Shown piece after piece: positions 505 to 6,931 of a stretch of DNA of 6,931 nucleotides. Under the pieces are notes generated by a model that saw only the letters and a program-made list of their open reading frames with translations, was not told the origin of the DNA and did not search any database. Each line of letters opens with the position of its first letter. The stretch's first letter is position 1. The DNA is taken from the NCBI GenBank assembly GCA_937942465.1, contig CALDEO010000292.1:1-6931 (forward strand), read 5' to 3'. Made by a program: the position numbers and the translations under genes. The stretch is from an uncultured Saprospiraceae bacterium. Lineage in GTDB: Bacteria > Bacteroidota > Bacteroidia > Chitinophagales > Saprospiraceae.

Positions 505-774
505 ATGATTACATTATTTACGATACTCATTGCAATTAACTGCATCCTTTTGACTTTAGTTATTCTTATCCAGAACCCAAAAGGTGGTGGTGTAGATAGT
601 ACTTTCGGTGGCTCAGGAGCTAACCAAATGCTAGGAGCAGCAAAATCGACTGACTTCATTGAGAAGTTAACTTGGGGACTTGCAGCTTCATTATTCCTAT
701 TGTGTATAATCACTGCGATCATGGTAAACATGAATTCAGGTGGTGTAGGTACCATGTTAGACTCAGAATTATAA
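505..774 (+). CDS. secG: Preprotein translocase subunit SecG
   Basis: SecG is the small non-essential subunit of the SecYEG inner-membrane channel and supports SecA-driven export. The 89-residue protein has the family layout. The first transmembrane helix (about residues 3-22) ends in the hallmark ILIQNPKGGG (21-30). A Gly/Ser-rich cytoplasmic loop follows, with FGGSGANQMLGAAKSTDF (34-51). A second helix spans about residues 56-74, and the short tail ends in DSEL. The length is normal for Bacteroidota SecG. The ATG at 505 follows the upstream stop after three bases, with no Shine-Dalgarno motif, as is usual in this phylum. The gene is the last of its operon, because a strong terminator starts 28 bases after the stop. 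Confidence 0.95.
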   Translation: MITLFTILIAINCILLTLVILIQNPKGGGVDSTFGGSGANQMLGAAKSTDFIEKLTWGLAASLFLLCIITAIMVNMNSGGVGTMLDSEL

Positions 775-801
775 GTAACACCGTTTACTTTACTAAAATA
801 T

Positions 802-833
802 AAAGCTTGTGACTCGCGTCACGAGCTTTTTTT
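802..833 (+). terminator. Intrinsic terminator of the secG operon
   Basis: A 12-bp stem pairs AAAGCTTGTGAC (802-813) with GTCACGAGCTTT (818-829), with a single U-G wobble and a TCGC loop. The run of seven T (827-833) overlaps the end of the 3' arm. This is a textbook rho-independent terminator and separates secG from the chaperonin operon. Confidence 0.93.
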
Positions 834-922
834 ATGTCATAATGTCAACCACTACCCCCTGAATACATGACATAATATTCGACGAAAGTCACTCCTACCC
901 AATGATGACTGATATTATGTCA
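832..922 (+). promoter_or_regulatory. Cluster of TTATGTCA half-sites upstream of groES (putative operator)
   Basis: TTATGTCA occurs three times in the groES upstream region: 832-839 forward, 868-875 reverse (as TGACATAA) and 915-922 forward. A one-mismatch copy, TAATGTCA, sits directly after the first (840-847). The second and third copies extend to a perfect 11-bp inverted repeat, TGACATAATAT (868-878) and ATATTATGTCA (912-922), with 33 bases between. I saw no other exact copy elsewhere in the window when reading by eye. The CIRCE element (TTAGCACTC-N9-GAGTGCTAA) is absent, as is a clear Bacteroidota TAnnTTTG box. Binding by a heat-shock or stress regulator is inference; the repeats are seen directly. 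Confidence 0.45.
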
Positions 923-1010
923 CCTATTGCGCATTGGCATAATCAATGATATAGTAGTAGTGTAATAATTTTTTAAATAATTTAATCATTCCGAAAAAAA
1001 TAATTGTTTT

Positions 1011-1283
1011 ATGATGAAGCCAATCAATGACAGAGTCGTAGTTAAACCAGCACCGGCGAACGAAAAATCGCAGGGAGGTATCATCATCCCAGACACAGCT
1101 AAAGAAAAGCCACAAAGAGGCGAAATCATCGCTGTAGGTCCAGGTAAGGATGATGTCAAGATGACTGTAAAAAAAGGTGATATTGTTTTATACGGTAAGT
1201 ATGCAGGACAAGAAATCAACTTTGAAGGTATAGACTATTTGATCATGAAGGAAGATGATATTCTAGTAATACTAGAAGACTAA
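1011..1283 (+). CDS. groES: Co-chaperonin GroES (Hsp10)
   Basis: GroES is the heptameric lid of the GroEL chamber; it binds in the presence of ATP and encloses substrate proteins in the cytosol. The 90-residue product starts [13 protein letters not shown], the standard N-terminal beta strand. The mobile loop is at about residues 17-33. It contains GGIIIPDTA, where III (24-26) corresponds to the hydrophobic tripeptide that docks on the GroEL apical domain. [11 protein letters not shown] (36-46) and the closing ILVILE strand are also typical. Two ATG codons lie in tandem (1011 and 1014); the second gives the MKPxxDR start seen in most homologues, so the true start could be 1014. No Shine-Dalgarno motif is visible, only an A/T-rich leader. 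groEL follows after 75 bases. Confidence 0.97.
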
Positions 1284-1352
1284 ATCATATCCTAATTGAA
1301 AGAATTATAAAGTTCTTACCCATTATTGTTCAACACTATCAAAAAAAATTAA

Positions 1353-2999
<1,647 letters not shown>

Positions 3000-3026
3000 A
3001 CAAGGCTTCCTAAAAAGCAAATATAT

Positions 3027-3062
3027 AGCCCGGTCAGATTTATTCTGATCGGGCTTTTTTTT
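3027..3062 (+). terminator. Intrinsic terminator of groESL
   Basis: A 12-bp stem pairs AGCCCGGTCAGA (3027-3038) with TCTGATCGGGCT (3044-3055), with one G-U wobble and a five-base loop. The T run extends to 3062. The 17-base stretch from TCTGATCGGGC through the first six T (3044-3060) recurs exactly in the terminator at 6657-6673. Confidence 0.94.
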
Positions 3063-3119
3063 ATACATCCAAAAATATTATTTGATATTTATTTAAAATA
3101 AATCTCCTCTACTGTCACA

Positions 3120-3152
3120 TTTTGGAATGATCCTGTGTATTCTATATAAATG
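3120..3152 (+). promoter_or_regulatory. Candidate Bacteroidota-type promoter for the SprB-repeat lipoprotein gene
   Basis: TTTG at 3121-3124 could be the -33 element. TATAAATG at 3145-3152, 20 bases downstream, matches the Bacteroidota -7 consensus TAnnTTTG at only four of the six specified positions. The spacing agrees with the 19-21 bases known for the phylum, and the site lies between the groEL terminator and the start codon at 3207. The weak -7 match and the AT-rich background make this tentative. Confidence 0.22.
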
Positions 3153-3206
3153 TCGAGCTCGTATAAAGACATTCATTAATTTTAAACCACAAAAAAACAT
3201 TTTAAT

Positions 3207-4193
3207 ATGAATTTTAAAATTGGAATATTCGGATTCTTAGCAGCAATACTTCTTATTGTATCATGCTCTAAAGAAAATATCGACACGTCTACAGAGGAGG
3301 AAGAAGAAAATCCAACTACTGTAGTTGATTGTAATCTAAGTGCAACAATAGTTATAGATTCTATTGCCGAATTAGAATTCACATACAGTGTAAGAGTTGA
3401 AGGAGGTACTAACCCCTATACGTATAGTTGGGCGACAGGAGAAGACACAGAGAGTATTCAGTTAGAAGAATTGGTAGATAATGCTATCGTTGTAACCGAT
3501 GCTGACGGTTGTGTTGCAACAGATAGTATCATTTTACAGGGAATGGATCCTTGTGAGGGTTTCGTAGGTGGTATTATTGACTCCTTATCATCGTCAGAGC
3601 TTTTTGCTTGGGTATCTGGTGGGACTGAGCCATATGCTTATCTATGGTCTACAGGAGAAACAACAAGTTCTATAACAGCAACAGAGCCAGGAAATTATGA
3701 CTTACTAATAATAGATGCACTCGAATGTGCCATTGCTTATACCTATAATGTTGTGTCAACTGATCCATGCAATGGTTTGGAAGTATTAATACAACAAGAT
3801 AATTTATCAAATTTCATTTGGGCTACCGCTTCGGGCGGCAATGGATCATATACTTATGAGTGGTCTACTGGACAGACCATACCACAAATTGAAGCTACAG
3901 AAAGTGGAACTTACACAGTGACTGTAACAGATTCTGAAGGTTGTACTGCTACATTTTCTATAACAGTTACTCTAGATGCAGATCCTTGTGGTAACTTTGA
4001 GATGTACATTCAACAAGATTCTCTTTCAACAGAAATCTATGGATTAGCTGCTGGAGGCACAAGCCCTTACAATTACTTATGGTCTACTGGAGAGACAACT
4101 ATTAGCATTATCGGCGAAGTAGGATCTACATATTCTGTAACGATATATGATGCAAACGAATGCACTTTAGAAGGTTCGTATCAAGTACAGTAA
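3207..4193 (+). CDS. Surface lipoprotein with four SprB-like repeats
   Basis: The N-terminus is a lipoprotein signal: a basic start, a hydrophobic core (5-18) and the lipobox LIVSC with Cys20 as the lipidation site. The segment after it (SKENIDTST, then five Glu at 30-34) is acidic, like the surface-export signals of Bacteroidota lipoproteins. The rest is four repeats of about 72 residues, each resembling SprB repeats (Pfam PF13573). Their core is GGTxPYxYxWSTGETTxSI followed by GxYxVxVxDxxxC. Each repeat has exactly two Cys: 42/102, 116/174, 188/246 and 261/319. No type IX secretion C-terminal domain is present, which fits anchoring by lipid rather than T9SS. SprB itself is a giant gliding adhesin; this short lipoprotein may be an adhesin or scaffold, but its function is unknown. 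It is a single-gene unit flanked by terminators. Confidence 0.85.
   Translation: MNFKIGIFGFLAAILLIVSCSKENIDTSTEEEEENPTTVVDCNLSATIVIDSIAELEFTYSVRVEGGTNPYTYSWATGEDTESIQLEELVDNAIVVTDADGCVATDSIILQGMDPCEGFVGGIIDSLSSSELFAWVSGGTEPYAYLWSTGETTSSITATEPGNYDLLIIDALECAIAYTYNVVSTDPCNGLEVLIQQDNLSNFIWATASGGNGSYTYEWSTGQTIPQIEATESGTYTVTVTDSEGCTATFSITVTLDADPCGNFEMYIQQDSLSTEIYGLAAGGTSPYNYLWSTGETTISIIGEVGSTYSVTIYDANECTLEGSYQVQ
3327..4190 (+). repeat. Four tandem SprB-like protein repeats
   Basis: The units cover residues 41-112, 114-185, 186-258 and 259-328. Units 2-4 start with DPC and unit 1 with VDC. The period is 72-74 residues, measured from first Cys to first Cys. Repeats 2 and 4 are still similar in DNA around the WSTGET core (TATGGTCTAC at 3643-3652 and 4078-4087). 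This suggests duplication within the gene, while repeat 1 has diverged most (WATGED in place of WSTGET). Confidence 0.85.
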
Positions 4194-4200
4194 TTAATCA

Positions 4201-4238
4201 AAGAAAGCATATTTAACCGAGGTTAAATATGCTTTCTT
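4201..4238 (+). terminator. Long perfect hairpin, probable terminator after the lipoprotein gene
   Basis: A 17-bp perfect stem pairs 4201-4217 with 4222-4238 around a CGAG loop, starting seven bases after the stop codon. The T tract directly after it is poor (the stem ends CTTTCTT, followed by ATTCT), but a run of nine T lies further on (4256-4264). It most likely acts as a terminator or a 3' mRNA stabiliser. The symmetry would also work for transcripts from the other strand. Confidence 0.75.
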
Positions 4239-4433: not shown

Positions 4434-5009
4434 ATGCATATAGAGAATACACTCATAGAAAAATGTCGCTCTAATGATAGAGCAGCACAGAAAGAACTGT
4501 ATAGCATGACACTGCCATATCTACGGGCCGTTGCCCATAGATATCTACGTGATCAATCTTACATAAAGGATGTACTACAAGAGAGCTTCATAAAAGTATT
4601 TAAAAACATAAGCTCTTACAATTCAGAAAAAGGAACCATCCAAAATTGGGCAACCAAAATAGTTATCAATAGTTGCTTTAACTATAATGATCGTGTTATA
4701 AAAACACCTAATGTCGAACTTGACCATGGCAAACACGATATTGCTTTCAGCAATACCAATTACGAGTCATTCTCAGATGAAGATCTACTGTTGCTTTTAA
4801 AGAAAATGCCTACCGAATACTTTAGAACTTTCAATCTATTTGTCATCGATGGTTACTCTCACGATGAGATAGCAGATTTACTTAAAATATCTAGCTCACT
4901 TTCTAGAAAACGACTTTCACGAGCTAAACAATGGCTCAAAAATCAACTAACAGATGATAAAGGTTCGCGAACGTTCAATTATTCATTACTCATAAACTTT
5001 ATACTATAA
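4434..5009 (+). CDS. ECF-type RNA polymerase sigma-70 family sigma factor
   Basis: The protein has the two-domain layout of group 4 (ECF) sigma factors, which direct RNA polymerase to a small regulon. Region 2 spans about residues 12-90: YIKDVLQESFIKVFKNISSY (43-62) is the conserved core-binding helix and GTIQNWATKIVINSC (67-81) the -10 recognition part. Region 4 spans about 115-172, with LLLLLKKMPTEYFRTFNLF followed by the helix-turn-helix GYSHDEIADLLKISSSLSRKRLSRAKQWL. The usual G-x-S turn is changed to SSSLS. After region 4 there is an extra tail ending FNYSLLINFIL. The ATG at 4434 is the only possible ATG start, since an in-frame stop lies at 4386. The next gene starts two bases after the stop, so the pair is almost certainly translationally coupled; the partner is the likely anti-sigma factor. 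Targets are unknown. Confidence 0.88.
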   Translation: MHIENTLIEKCRSNDRAAQKELYSMTLPYLRAVAHRYLRDQSYIKDVLQESFIKVFKNISSYNSEKGTIQNWATKIVINSCFNYNDRVIKTPNVELDHGKHDIAFSNTNYESFSDEDLLLLLKKMPTEYFRTFNLFVIDGYSHDEIADLLKISSSLSRKRLSRAKQWLKNQLTDDKGSRTFNYSLLINFIL

Positions 5010-5011
5010 AC

Positions 5012-6583
5012 ATGGAACATTTAGAAAATGAGTTTAAAAAAAGGTTTGGAGATCAACAGCTTTCAAGTGAAGGATTTGATGCCGATGGTTTATGGGATGA
5101 TATCAACAAGGATCTAGAACAAGATACTGTCATCGTACCACCTCCGACAAATGGCCTACCTGTATCGCAATTAGCCACTATTGTGATCGTATTGATCGTA
5201 ATAGGCATCCTCTCATTTATCACTATCACCTCGAATAATAAAGATAATAACCTGAGTAGTGAAGTAACCACTACACCAGAAAAAAATCAAACCAAGAAAT
5301 ACACTGATCCGTCACTAGTAGCTACTAATAAGATAGATAAGTCCACAGATATACATATCTCACAAACTACTCCTACCCTATTGGATAAGTCCGTTAGTGA
5401 AAATAAAAATAATCAAGACCGTTCATTAGCTTACGCAAATAACAACATCAATGATCCAAATAATCAATCACAGAATAGTCAACTATCAAATCAACAACGT
5501 ACTGAAAATCAGATAAATAGTAACCAATCAAAGAGCATCGAACATCAATCAACATCTGCAGCTTACGCAAATACCATTAAATCCGATATATCGAAACAAC
5601 GACTTACAACGGATCAACAAAAAAATAATGAGCTCGGAAATAATATGAACTCGACCGCAAATACAGATAGAGTTGTAACCTTTGAAAATTCTAAAGTAGA
5701 TAATTCTATTACTAAATCTACATCGAATACTTTAACGACATCTCAGCCTTTGCCCCCCCAAATAGATAGATTATCTATACCAATAGCAGCTTTATTATAT
5801 GACTCAAAAGCTATTGCTGTAAGTCTTAATAATGCGCCTACATATCACATAAAAGATCATAATAATCAATTTGCTTTCTATGCTAGCATATATGGTGGAA
5901 TCAATAGCTTTACGCAAACATTCTCTAACACTCAGTCTAGTGATCTCGTAGATCAACTAAACCTTGCTAACAATACACATATCGGTACTAACGTAGGCTT
6001 AGGAGCGACGGTAAGATTACACAACAAATGGGCTTTAAATACGGGTATCGAATACACCCAATTATGGAATAAATTAGATATCACTCAACAAAATACAACT
6101 ACAAGACTTAAGGAAGATCAATTGCTCAAAGTATGGATCCAACAGTCAACAGGAGATACAATTGCCGAACAAAGAGGTGCTGCTAATATCAATGTCATAC
6201 AGACACGAAAAGTGCAACATTACAACTCATACCAACGAATATCGATCCCATTGGAGTTTGGCATCAACAGGGCTTACAACAGATGGAACTATGGTATTAA
6301 TGCTGGTGTTGCATTCAACTTCACAACAGCACAAGCAGGAAAAACACTAGATAGTGCTGGAGCAATAGTTGACTTCAATACTAATAATGAGATCGCTTCA
6401 TTCCGATCATTTGATATTGGCTTTAGAGTCAACGCTAGCGCAAGCTATCACATAACAGATAAAATATCGCTCACCTTGTCCCCTCAATGGATGAGAGTAA
6501 ATGGTAATAATCAAAGAACTGATATCACATCGACCATACAGCAGTTTCAATTAAATATAGGAGCTAGCTATCGACTAAGATAA
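5012..6583 (+). CDS. Putative anti-sigma / outer-membrane beta-barrel fusion spanning the envelope
   Basis: This 523-residue protein has four parts. Residues 1-52 are charged and presumably cytoplasmic, with F.KRFGD and the GLWDDINKDL motif found at the start of many Bacteroidota proteins encoded beside sigma factors. Residues 53-72 are one strong transmembrane helix. Residues 73-285 are a low-complexity linker dominated by Asn, Gln, Ser and Thr, without Cys. Residues 286-523 show about eight amphipathic beta strands (roughly 286-299, 323-336, 338-357, 397-416, 424-438, 464-479, 483-497 and 508-522). They include ISIPLEFGINR and NYGINAGVAFNF, typical of the PorT/OMP_b-brl families. There is no cleavable signal peptide, and no ATG between codon 1 and Met212 offers a shorter export start. 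The gene sits two bases after the ECF sigma gene. Sigma binding by the N-terminus is inferred from context; the barrel ligand is unknown. Confidence 0.72.
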   Translation: MEHLENEFKKRFGDQQLSSEGFDADGLWDDINKDLEQDTVIVPPPTNGLPVSQLATIVIVLIVIGILSFITITSNNKDNNLSSEVTTTPEKNQTKKYTDPSLVATNKIDKSTDIHISQTTPTLLDKSVSENKNNQDRSLAYANNNINDPNNQSQNSQLSNQQRTENQINSNQSKSIEHQSTSAAYANTIKSDISKQRLTTDQQKNNELGNNMNSTANTDRVVTFENSKVDNSITKSTSNTLTTSQPLPPQIDRLSIPIAALLYDSKAIAVSLNNAPTYHIKDHNNQFAFYASIYGGINSFTQTFSNTQSSDLVDQLNLANNTHIGTNVGLGATVRLHNKWALNTGIEYTQLWNKLDITQQNTTTRLKEDQLLKVWIQQSTGDTIAEQRGAANINVIQTRKVQHYNSYQRISIPLEFGINRAYNRWNYGINAGVAFNFTTAQAGKTLDSAGAIVDFNTNNEIASFRSFDIGFRVNASASYHITDKISLTLSPQWMRVNGNNQRTDITSTIQQFQLNIGASYRLR

Positions 6584-6640: not shown

Positions 6641-6673
6641 GTCCGATCAGATTGACTCTGATCGGGCTTTTTT
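6641..6673 (+). terminator. Intrinsic terminator of the sigma/fusion unit
   Basis: An 11-bp stem pairs GTCCGATCAGA (6641-6651) with TCTGATCGGGC (6657-6667), with one U-G wobble, a TTGAC loop and six T (6668-6673). A second small hairpin lies just upstream, TATTACC (6614-6620) with GGTAATA (6629-6635), and may support termination or protect the mRNA end. The 3' arm and T tract are identical to the groESL terminator. Confidence 0.92.
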
Positions 6674-6698: not shown

Positions 6699-6931
6699 AT
6701 GGAAGAAAATGCCCTACAATCAGCAATATTACAGCTACAATATTACAAATCACTAGGTGACAAGACATTCGCTCAACTCACAGAATCGGATATACACTGG
6801 ACCACAGATACAAGTCAAAACTCCATAGCGATTATAGTTAACCACCTTACGGGGAATATGCTATCAAGATGGACCAACATACTTGAAGAAGATGGCGAGA
6901 AAGACTGGCGCAACCGAGACCAAGAGTTCGA
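6699..6931 (+). CDS. DUF1572 (DinB-superfamily) protein, N-terminal part
   Basis: The frame starts at ATG 6699 and runs off the right edge after 77 codons. The visible protein begins MEENALQSAILQLQYYKSLG, then DKTFAQLTESDIHW, SIAIIVNHLTGNMLSRW and GEKDWRNRDQEF. These segments match the DUF1572 family (Pfam PF07609), a four-helix-bundle relative of the DinB/YfiT metal-binding enzymes. His in IVNHLTGN is the expected first metal ligand; the other ligands would lie beyond the window. Family members are cytosolic and their substrates are mostly unknown, with thiol-dependent transferase or detoxification roles suggested for relatives. The gene follows a terminator by 25 bases, so it needs its own promoter, which must lie in or very near that terminator; I could not identify it. 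Confidence 0.85.
   Translation, partial: MEENALQSAILQLQYYKSLGDKTFAQLTESDIHWTTDTSQNSIAIIVNHLTGNMLSRWTNILEEDGEKDWRNRDQEF

What the first reader, a model, noticed from the sequence alone, without database searches (positions are those of the whole stretch)
4434..6583. ECF sigma factor coupled to a single protein that appears to span both membranes
The gene two bases after an ECF sigma factor encodes, in order, a cytoplasmic segment with a GLWDDI motif, one transmembrane helix, a ~210-residue linker and a probable 8-strand outer-membrane barrel. In classical systems (FecI-FecR-FecA) these roles belong to separate proteins. Here one chain could sense at the outer membrane and hold the sigma factor in the cytoplasm. 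An 8-strand barrel has both ends in the periplasm, which agrees with this topology. The architecture is read from sequence; sigma binding and signalling are inferred. I recall similar pairs in other Bacteroidota annotated only as outer-membrane beta-barrel protein, without a described mechanism.
Basis: partly seen in the sequence, partly recalled or inferred. Interest (0 to 1): 0.72.

Follow-up and report, generated by a model that had tools for sequence, protein, structure and literature searches.

The report
Anti-sigma protein bridging both membranes
A gene-switch protein (sigma factor) is encoded next to one long protein that is predicted to span both membranes of the cell and likely holds the switch until a surface signal frees it; this design is already known from gut Bacteroides (the Dma family), and here it sits beside a predicted surface-lipoprotein gene with its own conserved promoter-like element, its likely target.

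Summary
ORF 4434-5009 is an ECF sigma factor. Two bases on, ORF 5012-6583 (523 aa) has two N-terminal helices with GLWDDI, one transmembrane helix (51-74), a disordered tether (75-282) and a confident 8-strand OmpA/OmpW-like barrel (287-521). [quoted passage not shown] EcfO-Reo, Dma1/2). Both ends match Bacteroides-type Dma proteins by profile comparison (E 6e-11 N-terminus, 1.6e-12 barrel), and the sigma factors share a clade apart from other sigmas of those genomes. What adds something lies outside the given coordinates. The gene 5' of the sigma gene is a predicted lipoprotein (SprB repeats); a same-strand lipoprotein takes that place in 27 of 34 related pairs, against 8 of 48 control neighbours. 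Before it sits TGTCACA-N15-GTGTAT, the only match in the held (65% complete) genome; of 17 matches in eleven genomes 7 lie 51-67 nt before such a lipoprotein gene. So the pair likely drives its own surface lipoprotein, as EcfO-Reo drives NigD. Sigma binding, dual-membrane insertion, signal and target are predicted, not shown. Verdict: new member of a known kind.

The parts
3113..3140 (+). Promoter-like element TGTCACA-N15-GTGTAT, 66 nt before the lipoprotein ORF
   Evidence: Found with 15-nt spacing before 8 of 10 lipoprotein genes of the window clade and sisters and 0 of 17 others; 0.001 expected per 10 resampled sequences; only match of TGTCACA-N15-GNRTAT in the held genome. Promoter activity not shown.
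3207..4193 (+). Predicted lipoprotein (328 aa) with SprB repeats and CSKENID at the lipobox Cys; likely target of the sigma factor
   Evidence: PF13573 SprB 5.8e-11, 4 stretches; lipoprotein in this place in 27 of 34 pairs; SprB in 7 of 7 of the nearest clade.
4201..4238 (+). Hairpin between lipoprotein and sigma genes, probable terminator
   Evidence: RNA fold z -6.4, 0 of 200 shuffles as good.
4434..5009 (+). ECF sigma factor (191 aa), Das-like
   Evidence: Pfam r2 and r4; tree groups it with Bacteroides Das-type sigmas apart from 16 other sigmas of the same reference genomes, SH-aLRT 97.
5012..5170 (+). Dma-type protein, residues 1-53: predicted cytoplasmic anti-sigma segment with GLWDDI
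   Evidence: AF2 helices 2-12 and 24-35; hhalign to Bacteroides-type Dma N-termini prob 97.1, E 6e-11.
5171..5227 (+). Transmembrane segment, residues 54-72 (AF2 helix 51-74)
   Evidence: Hydropathy 3.03 at 54; AF2.
5234..5869 (+). Predicted disordered periplasmic tether, residues 75-286 (N/S/T-rich, no Cys)
   Evidence: pLDDT about 30; 27 aligned rows, window included: 199 +/- 28 residues, range 151-261.
5870..6574 (+). Predicted 8-strand outer-membrane barrel, residues 287-521
6641..6667 (+). Terminator-like hairpin with T tail after the Dma gene

Best explanation
The window encodes an ECF sigma factor (4434-5009) and, two bases on, a Dma-type protein (5012-6583) that is predicted to run from the cytoplasm through the inner membrane and a disordered tether to an outer-membrane barrel, and that likely holds the sigma factor inactive until an unknown surface signal releases it to transcribe, most likely, the predicted SprB-repeat lipoprotein gene next door (3207-4193). 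Shown by sequence and computation: the gene order, the homology of both ends to Bacteroides-type Dma proteins, the shared sigma clade, the conserved lipoprotein neighbour and the conserved element TGTCACA-N15-GTGTAT before it. Inferred: insertion in both membranes, binding of the sigma factor by residues 1-53 (the Trp helix), release (by pulling on the tether or by proteolysis), and recognition of that element by this sigma factor. The lipoprotein would be a surface product, in the place that NigD holds in the EcfO-Reo system.
For: Architecture: AF2 and PDB matches. Family: hhalign of barrels E 1.6e-12 and N-termini E 6e-11 with nine proteins next to Das-type sigmas of Bacteroides, Phocaeicola and Chryseobacterium. 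In five Bacteroides/Phocaeicola genomes the window-type sigma profile finds 1-3 sigmas each at E 2e-41 to 1e-49 and nothing more before 1e-24; 8 of these 9 are followed by a TM chain that aligns with the others in A5, the ninth (L230) is fused to a chain that the Dma profile matches at E 3.5e-6. Sigma tree: 96 such sigmas against 16 others, split at 97 (the 16 were picked as weaker matches). Sigma/anti-sigma: a model of a relative's sigma plus anti-sigma segment (stop read as Gln) has pTM 0.77 and pLDDT 92-96 on the Trp helix; its sigma domains align over 144-157 residues at 4.0-5.0 A with SigW-RsiW, CnrH-CnrY and RpoE-NepR, while RNA-polymerase-bound ECF sigmas in the list align on one domain only or at above 20 A. 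Target: lipoprotein neighbour 27 of 34 against 5 of 23 and 3 of 25 (pooled Fisher p 1.2e-8); lipoprotein type follows sigma relatedness, 0 of 2000 label shuffles as strong; element nearly private to it. Published parallel: EcfO-Reo drives three nigD surface-lipoprotein genes, one numbered next to the pair (passages); at a B. fragilis locus the divergent neighbour of such a sigma gene is NigD, PF17415 1.6e-32.
Against: No binding, localisation or expression data for this protein. The window protein lacks the usual K/R-rich stretch before its TM. Modelled alone, its N-terminal helices have only moderate pLDDT (blocks 77, 55, 65, 52). The joined model has no control (sigma alone, mismatched pair), 8 of its 41 rows are paired, its first anti-sigma helix has pLDDT 73-79, other anti-sigma-bound sigmas align on one domain only (SigE-RseA, AlgU-MucA, SigE-ChrR) or poorly (SigK 8.1 A, BldN 12.5 A), and unbound SigG1 aligns as well as the bound ones (156 residues, 3.8 A). 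The element is not seen before the sigma gene and is absent from the G037 locus and genome. A hairpin separates lipoprotein and sigma genes. 7 of 34 pairs lack the lipoprotein as first neighbour; of ten Das-type loci about five have one by eye, one of them tested. The lipoprotein rule was written after the pattern was seen.
Confidence: 0.66

Rival explanations
1. Same Dma-type sigma/anti-sigma pair, but the lipoprotein is a partner or ligand of the barrel (a surface sensor arm, as RcsF is threaded through OmpA in E. coli, recalled) and not the main target.
For: Lipoprotein type tracks the sigma type; its start resembles, without fully matching, the surface export signal C-X-K-(D/E)2 (PMC5080379 passages); L031 keeps the lipoprotein-like ORF and the Dma chain without a sigma gene between.
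Against: The conserved promoter-like element sits before the lipoprotein gene, not before the sigma gene, and NigD, the counterpart in P. vulgatus, is a reported target.
Confidence: 0.2
2. The hydrophobic segment is cleaved in the cell, so the barrel is an ordinary free outer-membrane protein and the anti-sigma is a short inner-membrane stub.
For: In L051 the sigma domain is fused to a membrane segment and a separate barrel ORF with a signal-peptide-like start follows.
Against: No AXA or Cys after the segment in the window protein; TM and barrel stay in one chain, with a 151-261 residue tether, in 27 of 27 aligned rows, window included (rows chosen for barrel similarity).
Confidence: 0.07
3. 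A FecI-FecR-FecA type system.
For: Weak TIGR02985 hit of the sigma factor, 62.9 bits against a cut-off of 126.4.
Against: No FecR domain; sigma clade apart from an outgroup that holds the sigmas with FecR-like neighbours (by eye); no ORF in the window long enough for a TonB-dependent receptor.
Confidence: 0.02
4. Chance neighbours: the barrel protein has nothing to do with the sigma factor.
For: None beyond missing experiments.
Against: Sigma, Trp motif and TM recur together in 84 of 86 loci, across genera and in several paralogues of one genome.
Confidence: 0.02

Closest known systems
[quoted passage not shown] Dma3 with the sigma domain in the same chain)
   Same: Same order: anti-sigma segment, TM helix, long disordered tether, C-terminal barrel, next to an ECF sigma gene (PMC13088901); both ends homologous to Dma-type proteins of other Bacteroides, Phocaeicola and Chryseobacterium (the B. 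thetaiotaomicron sequences themselves were not fetched); same broad sigma clade.
   Different: Other lineage; sigma subclade separate from the Das-type subclade; neighbouring lipoprotein has SprB repeats; vesiculation or PUL control not known here.
EcfO-Reo and NigD (B. fragilis, Phocaeicola vulgatus)
   Same: Pair of this architecture with surface-lipoprotein genes in its regulon, one numbered next to the pair; NigD is the divergent neighbour at a B. fragilis locus.
   Different: Here the lipoprotein is co-directional and SprB-type, and the candidate promoter appears to serve this one gene in the held genome.
FecI-FecR-FecA
   Same: ECF sigma factor controlled from the outer membrane through an inner-membrane anti-sigma (recalled).
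   Different: Three separate proteins with a TonB-dependent receptor (recalled); no FecR domain here.

Membership tests
[quoted passage not shown]
   Homology to the N-termini of Bacteroides-type Dma proteins, hhalign prob 97.1, E 6e-11. Binding itself not testable here.
[quoted passage not shown]
   AF2 helix 51-74; hydropathy.
[quoted passage not shown]
   Residues 75-282, pLDDT about 30.
[quoted passage not shown]
   8 strands, 287-521; hhalign to Bacteroides-type Dma barrels E 1.6e-12.
[quoted passage not shown]
   Adjacent to an ECF sigma in the same broad clade as Das-type sigmas, but no ECF21 model was at hand and the window lies outside the Das-type subclade.
[quoted passage not shown]
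   Needs genetics.
EcfO-Reo with NigD | NigD lipoprotein as neighbour | tested here: not met
   The neighbour is a SprB-repeat predicted lipoprotein; NigD found at a B. fragilis locus.
FecR anti-sigma factors | FecR domain | tested here: not met
   No Pfam FecR hit in the 523-aa protein at E up to 10.
Zinc anti-sigma factors | HxxxCxxC motif in the cytoplasmic segment (recalled) | tested here: not met
   No Cys in residues 1-75.

The most novel reading that the evidence does not exclude
The pair is one copy of a multiplied, modular surface-reporting cassette: each sigma factor with its own dual-membrane anti-sigma and its own surface lipoprotein behind a private promoter. On the same sigma/anti-sigma/TM chassis other lineages have swapped the barrel for PKD and CHU_C type IX secretion domains, so that a chain threaded out by type IX secretion would tie the cell surface to a cytoplasmic sigma factor.
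Probability: 0.35. Interest if true: 0.75.

Novelty: new member of a known kind. Interest (0 to 1): 0.47.

Why it matters
It carries the Dma architecture well outside gut Bacteroides. It also offers a predicted dedicated target, a neighbouring surface lipoprotein behind a clade-specific promoter-like element, which one deletion and one transcript assay can test. The swaps of the C-terminal module on one sigma chassis, including type IX secretion domains, make it possible to ask by comparison how a signal crosses two membranes in one chain.

Tried and rejected
Rejected: FecI-FecR-FecA type; zinc anti-sigma (no Cys in residues 1-75); chance neighbours. A fixed tether length as a ruler for the periplasm is not supported: it varies 151-261 residues.

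Led nowhere: a first promoter pattern with the wrong spacing gave 0 matches; dyad search in the other lipoprotein clade gave no signal over resampling (best support 3, resampled maximum 4); no comparable element was seen before the sigma genes. ECF21 membership could not be tested. Searches of the open-licence library found no report of the SprB lipoprotein cassette or of CHU_C anti-sigma proteins (listings only, none aimed at SprB by name). The PNAS 2024 Dma1 paper is not held and is known only through citing papers and recall, so it may say more about family distribution and neighbours.

Full report

It is a known kind. I recalled the Dma family and the library confirmed it. PMC13088901 (abstract, introduction, start of results, section on Das2, discussion, part of the reference list and passages read) gives exactly this order for Dma family members and says that ECF21 sigma factors are encoded adjacent to them. 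PMC9308784 (passages) describes the P. [quoted passage not shown] PMC13114119 (passages) calls Reo unique in spanning from cytoplasm to surface and reports that EcfO-Reo drives three nigD surface-lipoprotein genes. The founding Dma1 paper (PNAS 2024) was not held.

Membership by sequence. To get named references I reached Bacteroides loci by a 16S pattern and searched six genomes with the sigma profile A3. Twelve matches have E 1e-49 to 9e-41; the next is about 1e-24. The weaker ones that I looked at sit next to other anti-sigma types, FecR-like ones by eye among them. In the five Bacteroides/Phocaeicola genomes the strong matches (1, 1, 2, 2 and 3) have a TM chain downstream that aligns in A5, or, in B. 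salyersiae L230, are fused to it in one 542-aa chain, as described for Dma3. In Chryseobacterium indologenes one of three strong matches (L220) has such a protein, with the same GLWDDI; of the other two one is cut (L224) and one has a 202-aa partner (L231). Profile comparison links the window type and these Dma-type proteins in the barrel (E 1.6e-12) and in the N-terminus (E 6e-11). In a quick tree of 112 sigma factors (SH-aLRT only; one short row, L005, left out) 96 window-type sigmas, ten Das-type ones included, separate from 16 others at 97; Das-type rows form their own subclade and the window sits in another.

Generality. 21 of 60 genomes, own included, have a match to the 523-aa protein. 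The sigma profile finds matches at E <= 1e-20 in 57 of 60 genomes of the class, own included, and 13 in the window's own, 65% complete genome. I fetched the best match of most of these genomes, the own genome's listed ones and four with long open frames. Next to a sigma of this type 87 distinct proteins were seen (L048 and L083 showed none; L008 and L019 are cut by contig ends and L031 has no sigma gene). 86 of 87 have a hydrophobic segment, 84 of 86 a Trp before it, and K+R is higher before than after it in 68, equal in 11, lower in 7 (sign test p 6e-14). By iterated search, of the 58 fetched through the sigma factor 22 are barrel-like, 17 carry CHU_C/PKD ends and 19 were not called; of the 29 others 28 are barrel-like, as they were mostly chosen for that. 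In the own genome barrel-like partners follow six of the ten sigma places inspected (window, C97, C53, C208, C30, C213); C4 and C121 were not called, C235 and C197 are cut by contig ends. Six further barrels of that genome (L033-L037, L039) showed no sigma gene nearby and are taken as ordinary.

Does it bind the sigma factor? Not shown. The one test possible was a chain in which a relative's adjacent sigma and anti-sigma genes are read through the stop (L011). The model has mean pLDDT 86 and pTM 0.77, the Trp helix at 92-96, the first anti-sigma helix at 73-79. Its sigma domains are placed as in SigW, CnrH and RpoE bound by RsiW, CnrY and NepR (144-157 residues, 4.0-5.0 A), not as in polymerase-bound ECF sigmas. 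But SigE-RseA, AlgU-MucA and SigE-ChrR align on one domain only, SigK and BldN complexes at 8.1 and 12.5 A, and unbound SigG1 at 3.8 A. With no control and 8 of 41 rows paired this is supportive, not decisive.

The neighbour. Just upstream lies a predicted lipoprotein with SprB repeats (3207-4193). In 34 pairs (the window, seven more of its genome, 24 of the same family or genus and two of the same order; a 35th locus, L294, held no sigma) the first gene 5' of the sigma gene is a same-strand predicted lipoprotein in 27, against 5 of 23 second neighbours and 3 of 25 genes 3' of the Dma gene (Fisher p 1.9e-5, 2.2e-7, pooled 1.2e-8). The rule for a lipoprotein was written after the pattern was seen. 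In the own genome it is 6 of 8. In L266 and L270 the second neighbour is a lipoprotein of the same kind and counts with the controls. The residues after the Cys are alike (CSKENID, CDKEEID, CRKDTD and so on); the best surface-export signal in Capnocytophaga is C-X-K-(D/E)2 (PMC5080379, passages), which the window's CSKEN meets in part. SprB repeats occur in all 7 of the nearest clade; three of another clade have carboxypeptidase-regulatory-like domains. Body type follows sigma relatedness (0 of 2000 label shuffles as strong; relatedness of genomes is not removed). At ten Das-type loci about five have a lipoprotein neighbour by eye, four divergent and one co-directional; only one was scanned, and it is NigD.

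The element. Aligning three same-genus genomes showed TGTCACA-N15-GTGTAT before the lipoprotein gene, with a diverged spacer. It occurs with the same spacing before 8 of 10 lipoprotein genes of the window clade and sisters and 0 of 17 others; 0.001 per 10 expected by resampling. Of the two misses, L266 has it before a second, tandem SprB-type lipoprotein gene, 51 nt ahead, and L290 (G037) has none. At L270, whose lipoprotein is the second gene, a TGTCACA with a spacing of 14 is seen. In eleven genomes TGTCACA-N15-GNRTAT has 17 matches and the reversed control 2: 7 lie 51-67 nt before such a lipoprotein gene, 7 inside long ORFs, 1 lies 38 nt before another ORF and 2 have no ORF close downstream. 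The window's is the only match in its genome. Six of the seven come from loci used to see the pattern; the informative part is how little else matches. No such element precedes the sigma gene. A strong hairpin lies between lipoprotein and sigma genes in the window; hairpins with a T-rich tail were found in 6 of 16 such gaps examined.

Mechanism. The simplest reading: residues 1-53 hold the sigma factor at the inner membrane; the barrel, or what binds it, reports the state of the outer surface along the tether; release turns on the lipoprotein gene. Whether release is by pull, by unfolding or by proteolysis is open. That natural fusions hold the sigma domain itself at the membrane (L230, L051) suggests that in those cases proteolysis must free it; this is inference.

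Verdict. The cassette with its nearly private promoter-like element and the type IX ends are the parts that my searches did not find in print.

Noticed in passing
L056, L058, L061, L062, L064, L069, L074, L075, L079, L096, L100 (downstream ORFs): Proteins next to the same kind of sigma factor with a like N-terminal Trp segment and TM, but ending in CHU_C type IX secretion domains, most with PKD domains (CHU_C over cut-off in all 11 scanned, which were picked from 17 CHU_C-like ones; L096 also has SprB repeats). The CHU_C label needs 7 changes on the sigma tree, at least 3 forced by starred branches.
   Followed up: partly
L230:394-2022:- (Bacteroides salyersiae) and L051:1575-2690:-: Natural fusions of the sigma domain to a membrane segment; L230 continues into a tether and barrel-matching end, L051 is followed by a separate barrel-matching ORF with a signal-peptide-like start.
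   Followed up: partly
L031:814-2208:+: Dma-type chain with Trp segment and TM directly after a lipoprotein-like ORF, with no sigma gene between: an orphan or a partner of a distant sigma factor.
   Followed up: no
L045:643-2304:-, L049:1494-2696:-, L050:706-2436:+, L086:705-2471:-: Anti-sigma-like N-terminal segment repeated two or more times before the TM, by eye; might bind more than one sigma molecule.
   Followed up: no
G000 contigs C292, C97, C4, C53, C208, C235, C30, C213, C121, C197: At least ten sigma genes of this type in one 65% complete genome (13 matches at E <= 1e-20), nine of them with a TM partner in view.
   Followed up: partly
L289, about 80 nt before ORF 647-3349 (own genome C97): TGTGACG-N15-TGGTAT before the paralogue's lipoprotein gene: same layout, different letters, as if each sigma factor had its own promoter.
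   Followed up: no
L273, L276, L284, L286, L288, L298 upstream regions: TGCAGCG followed by AAA or TTT recurs before lipoprotein genes of other clades; possible promoter element, not tested for chance.
   Followed up: no
window 505-2999: ORFs that read as SecG, GroES and GroEL (named by eye); GroEL also precedes the lipoprotein gene in same-genus genomes G001 and G002 (by eye).
   Followed up: no
window 6700-6931: Start of a DinB-like ORF (by eye), cut by the window end.
   Followed up: no
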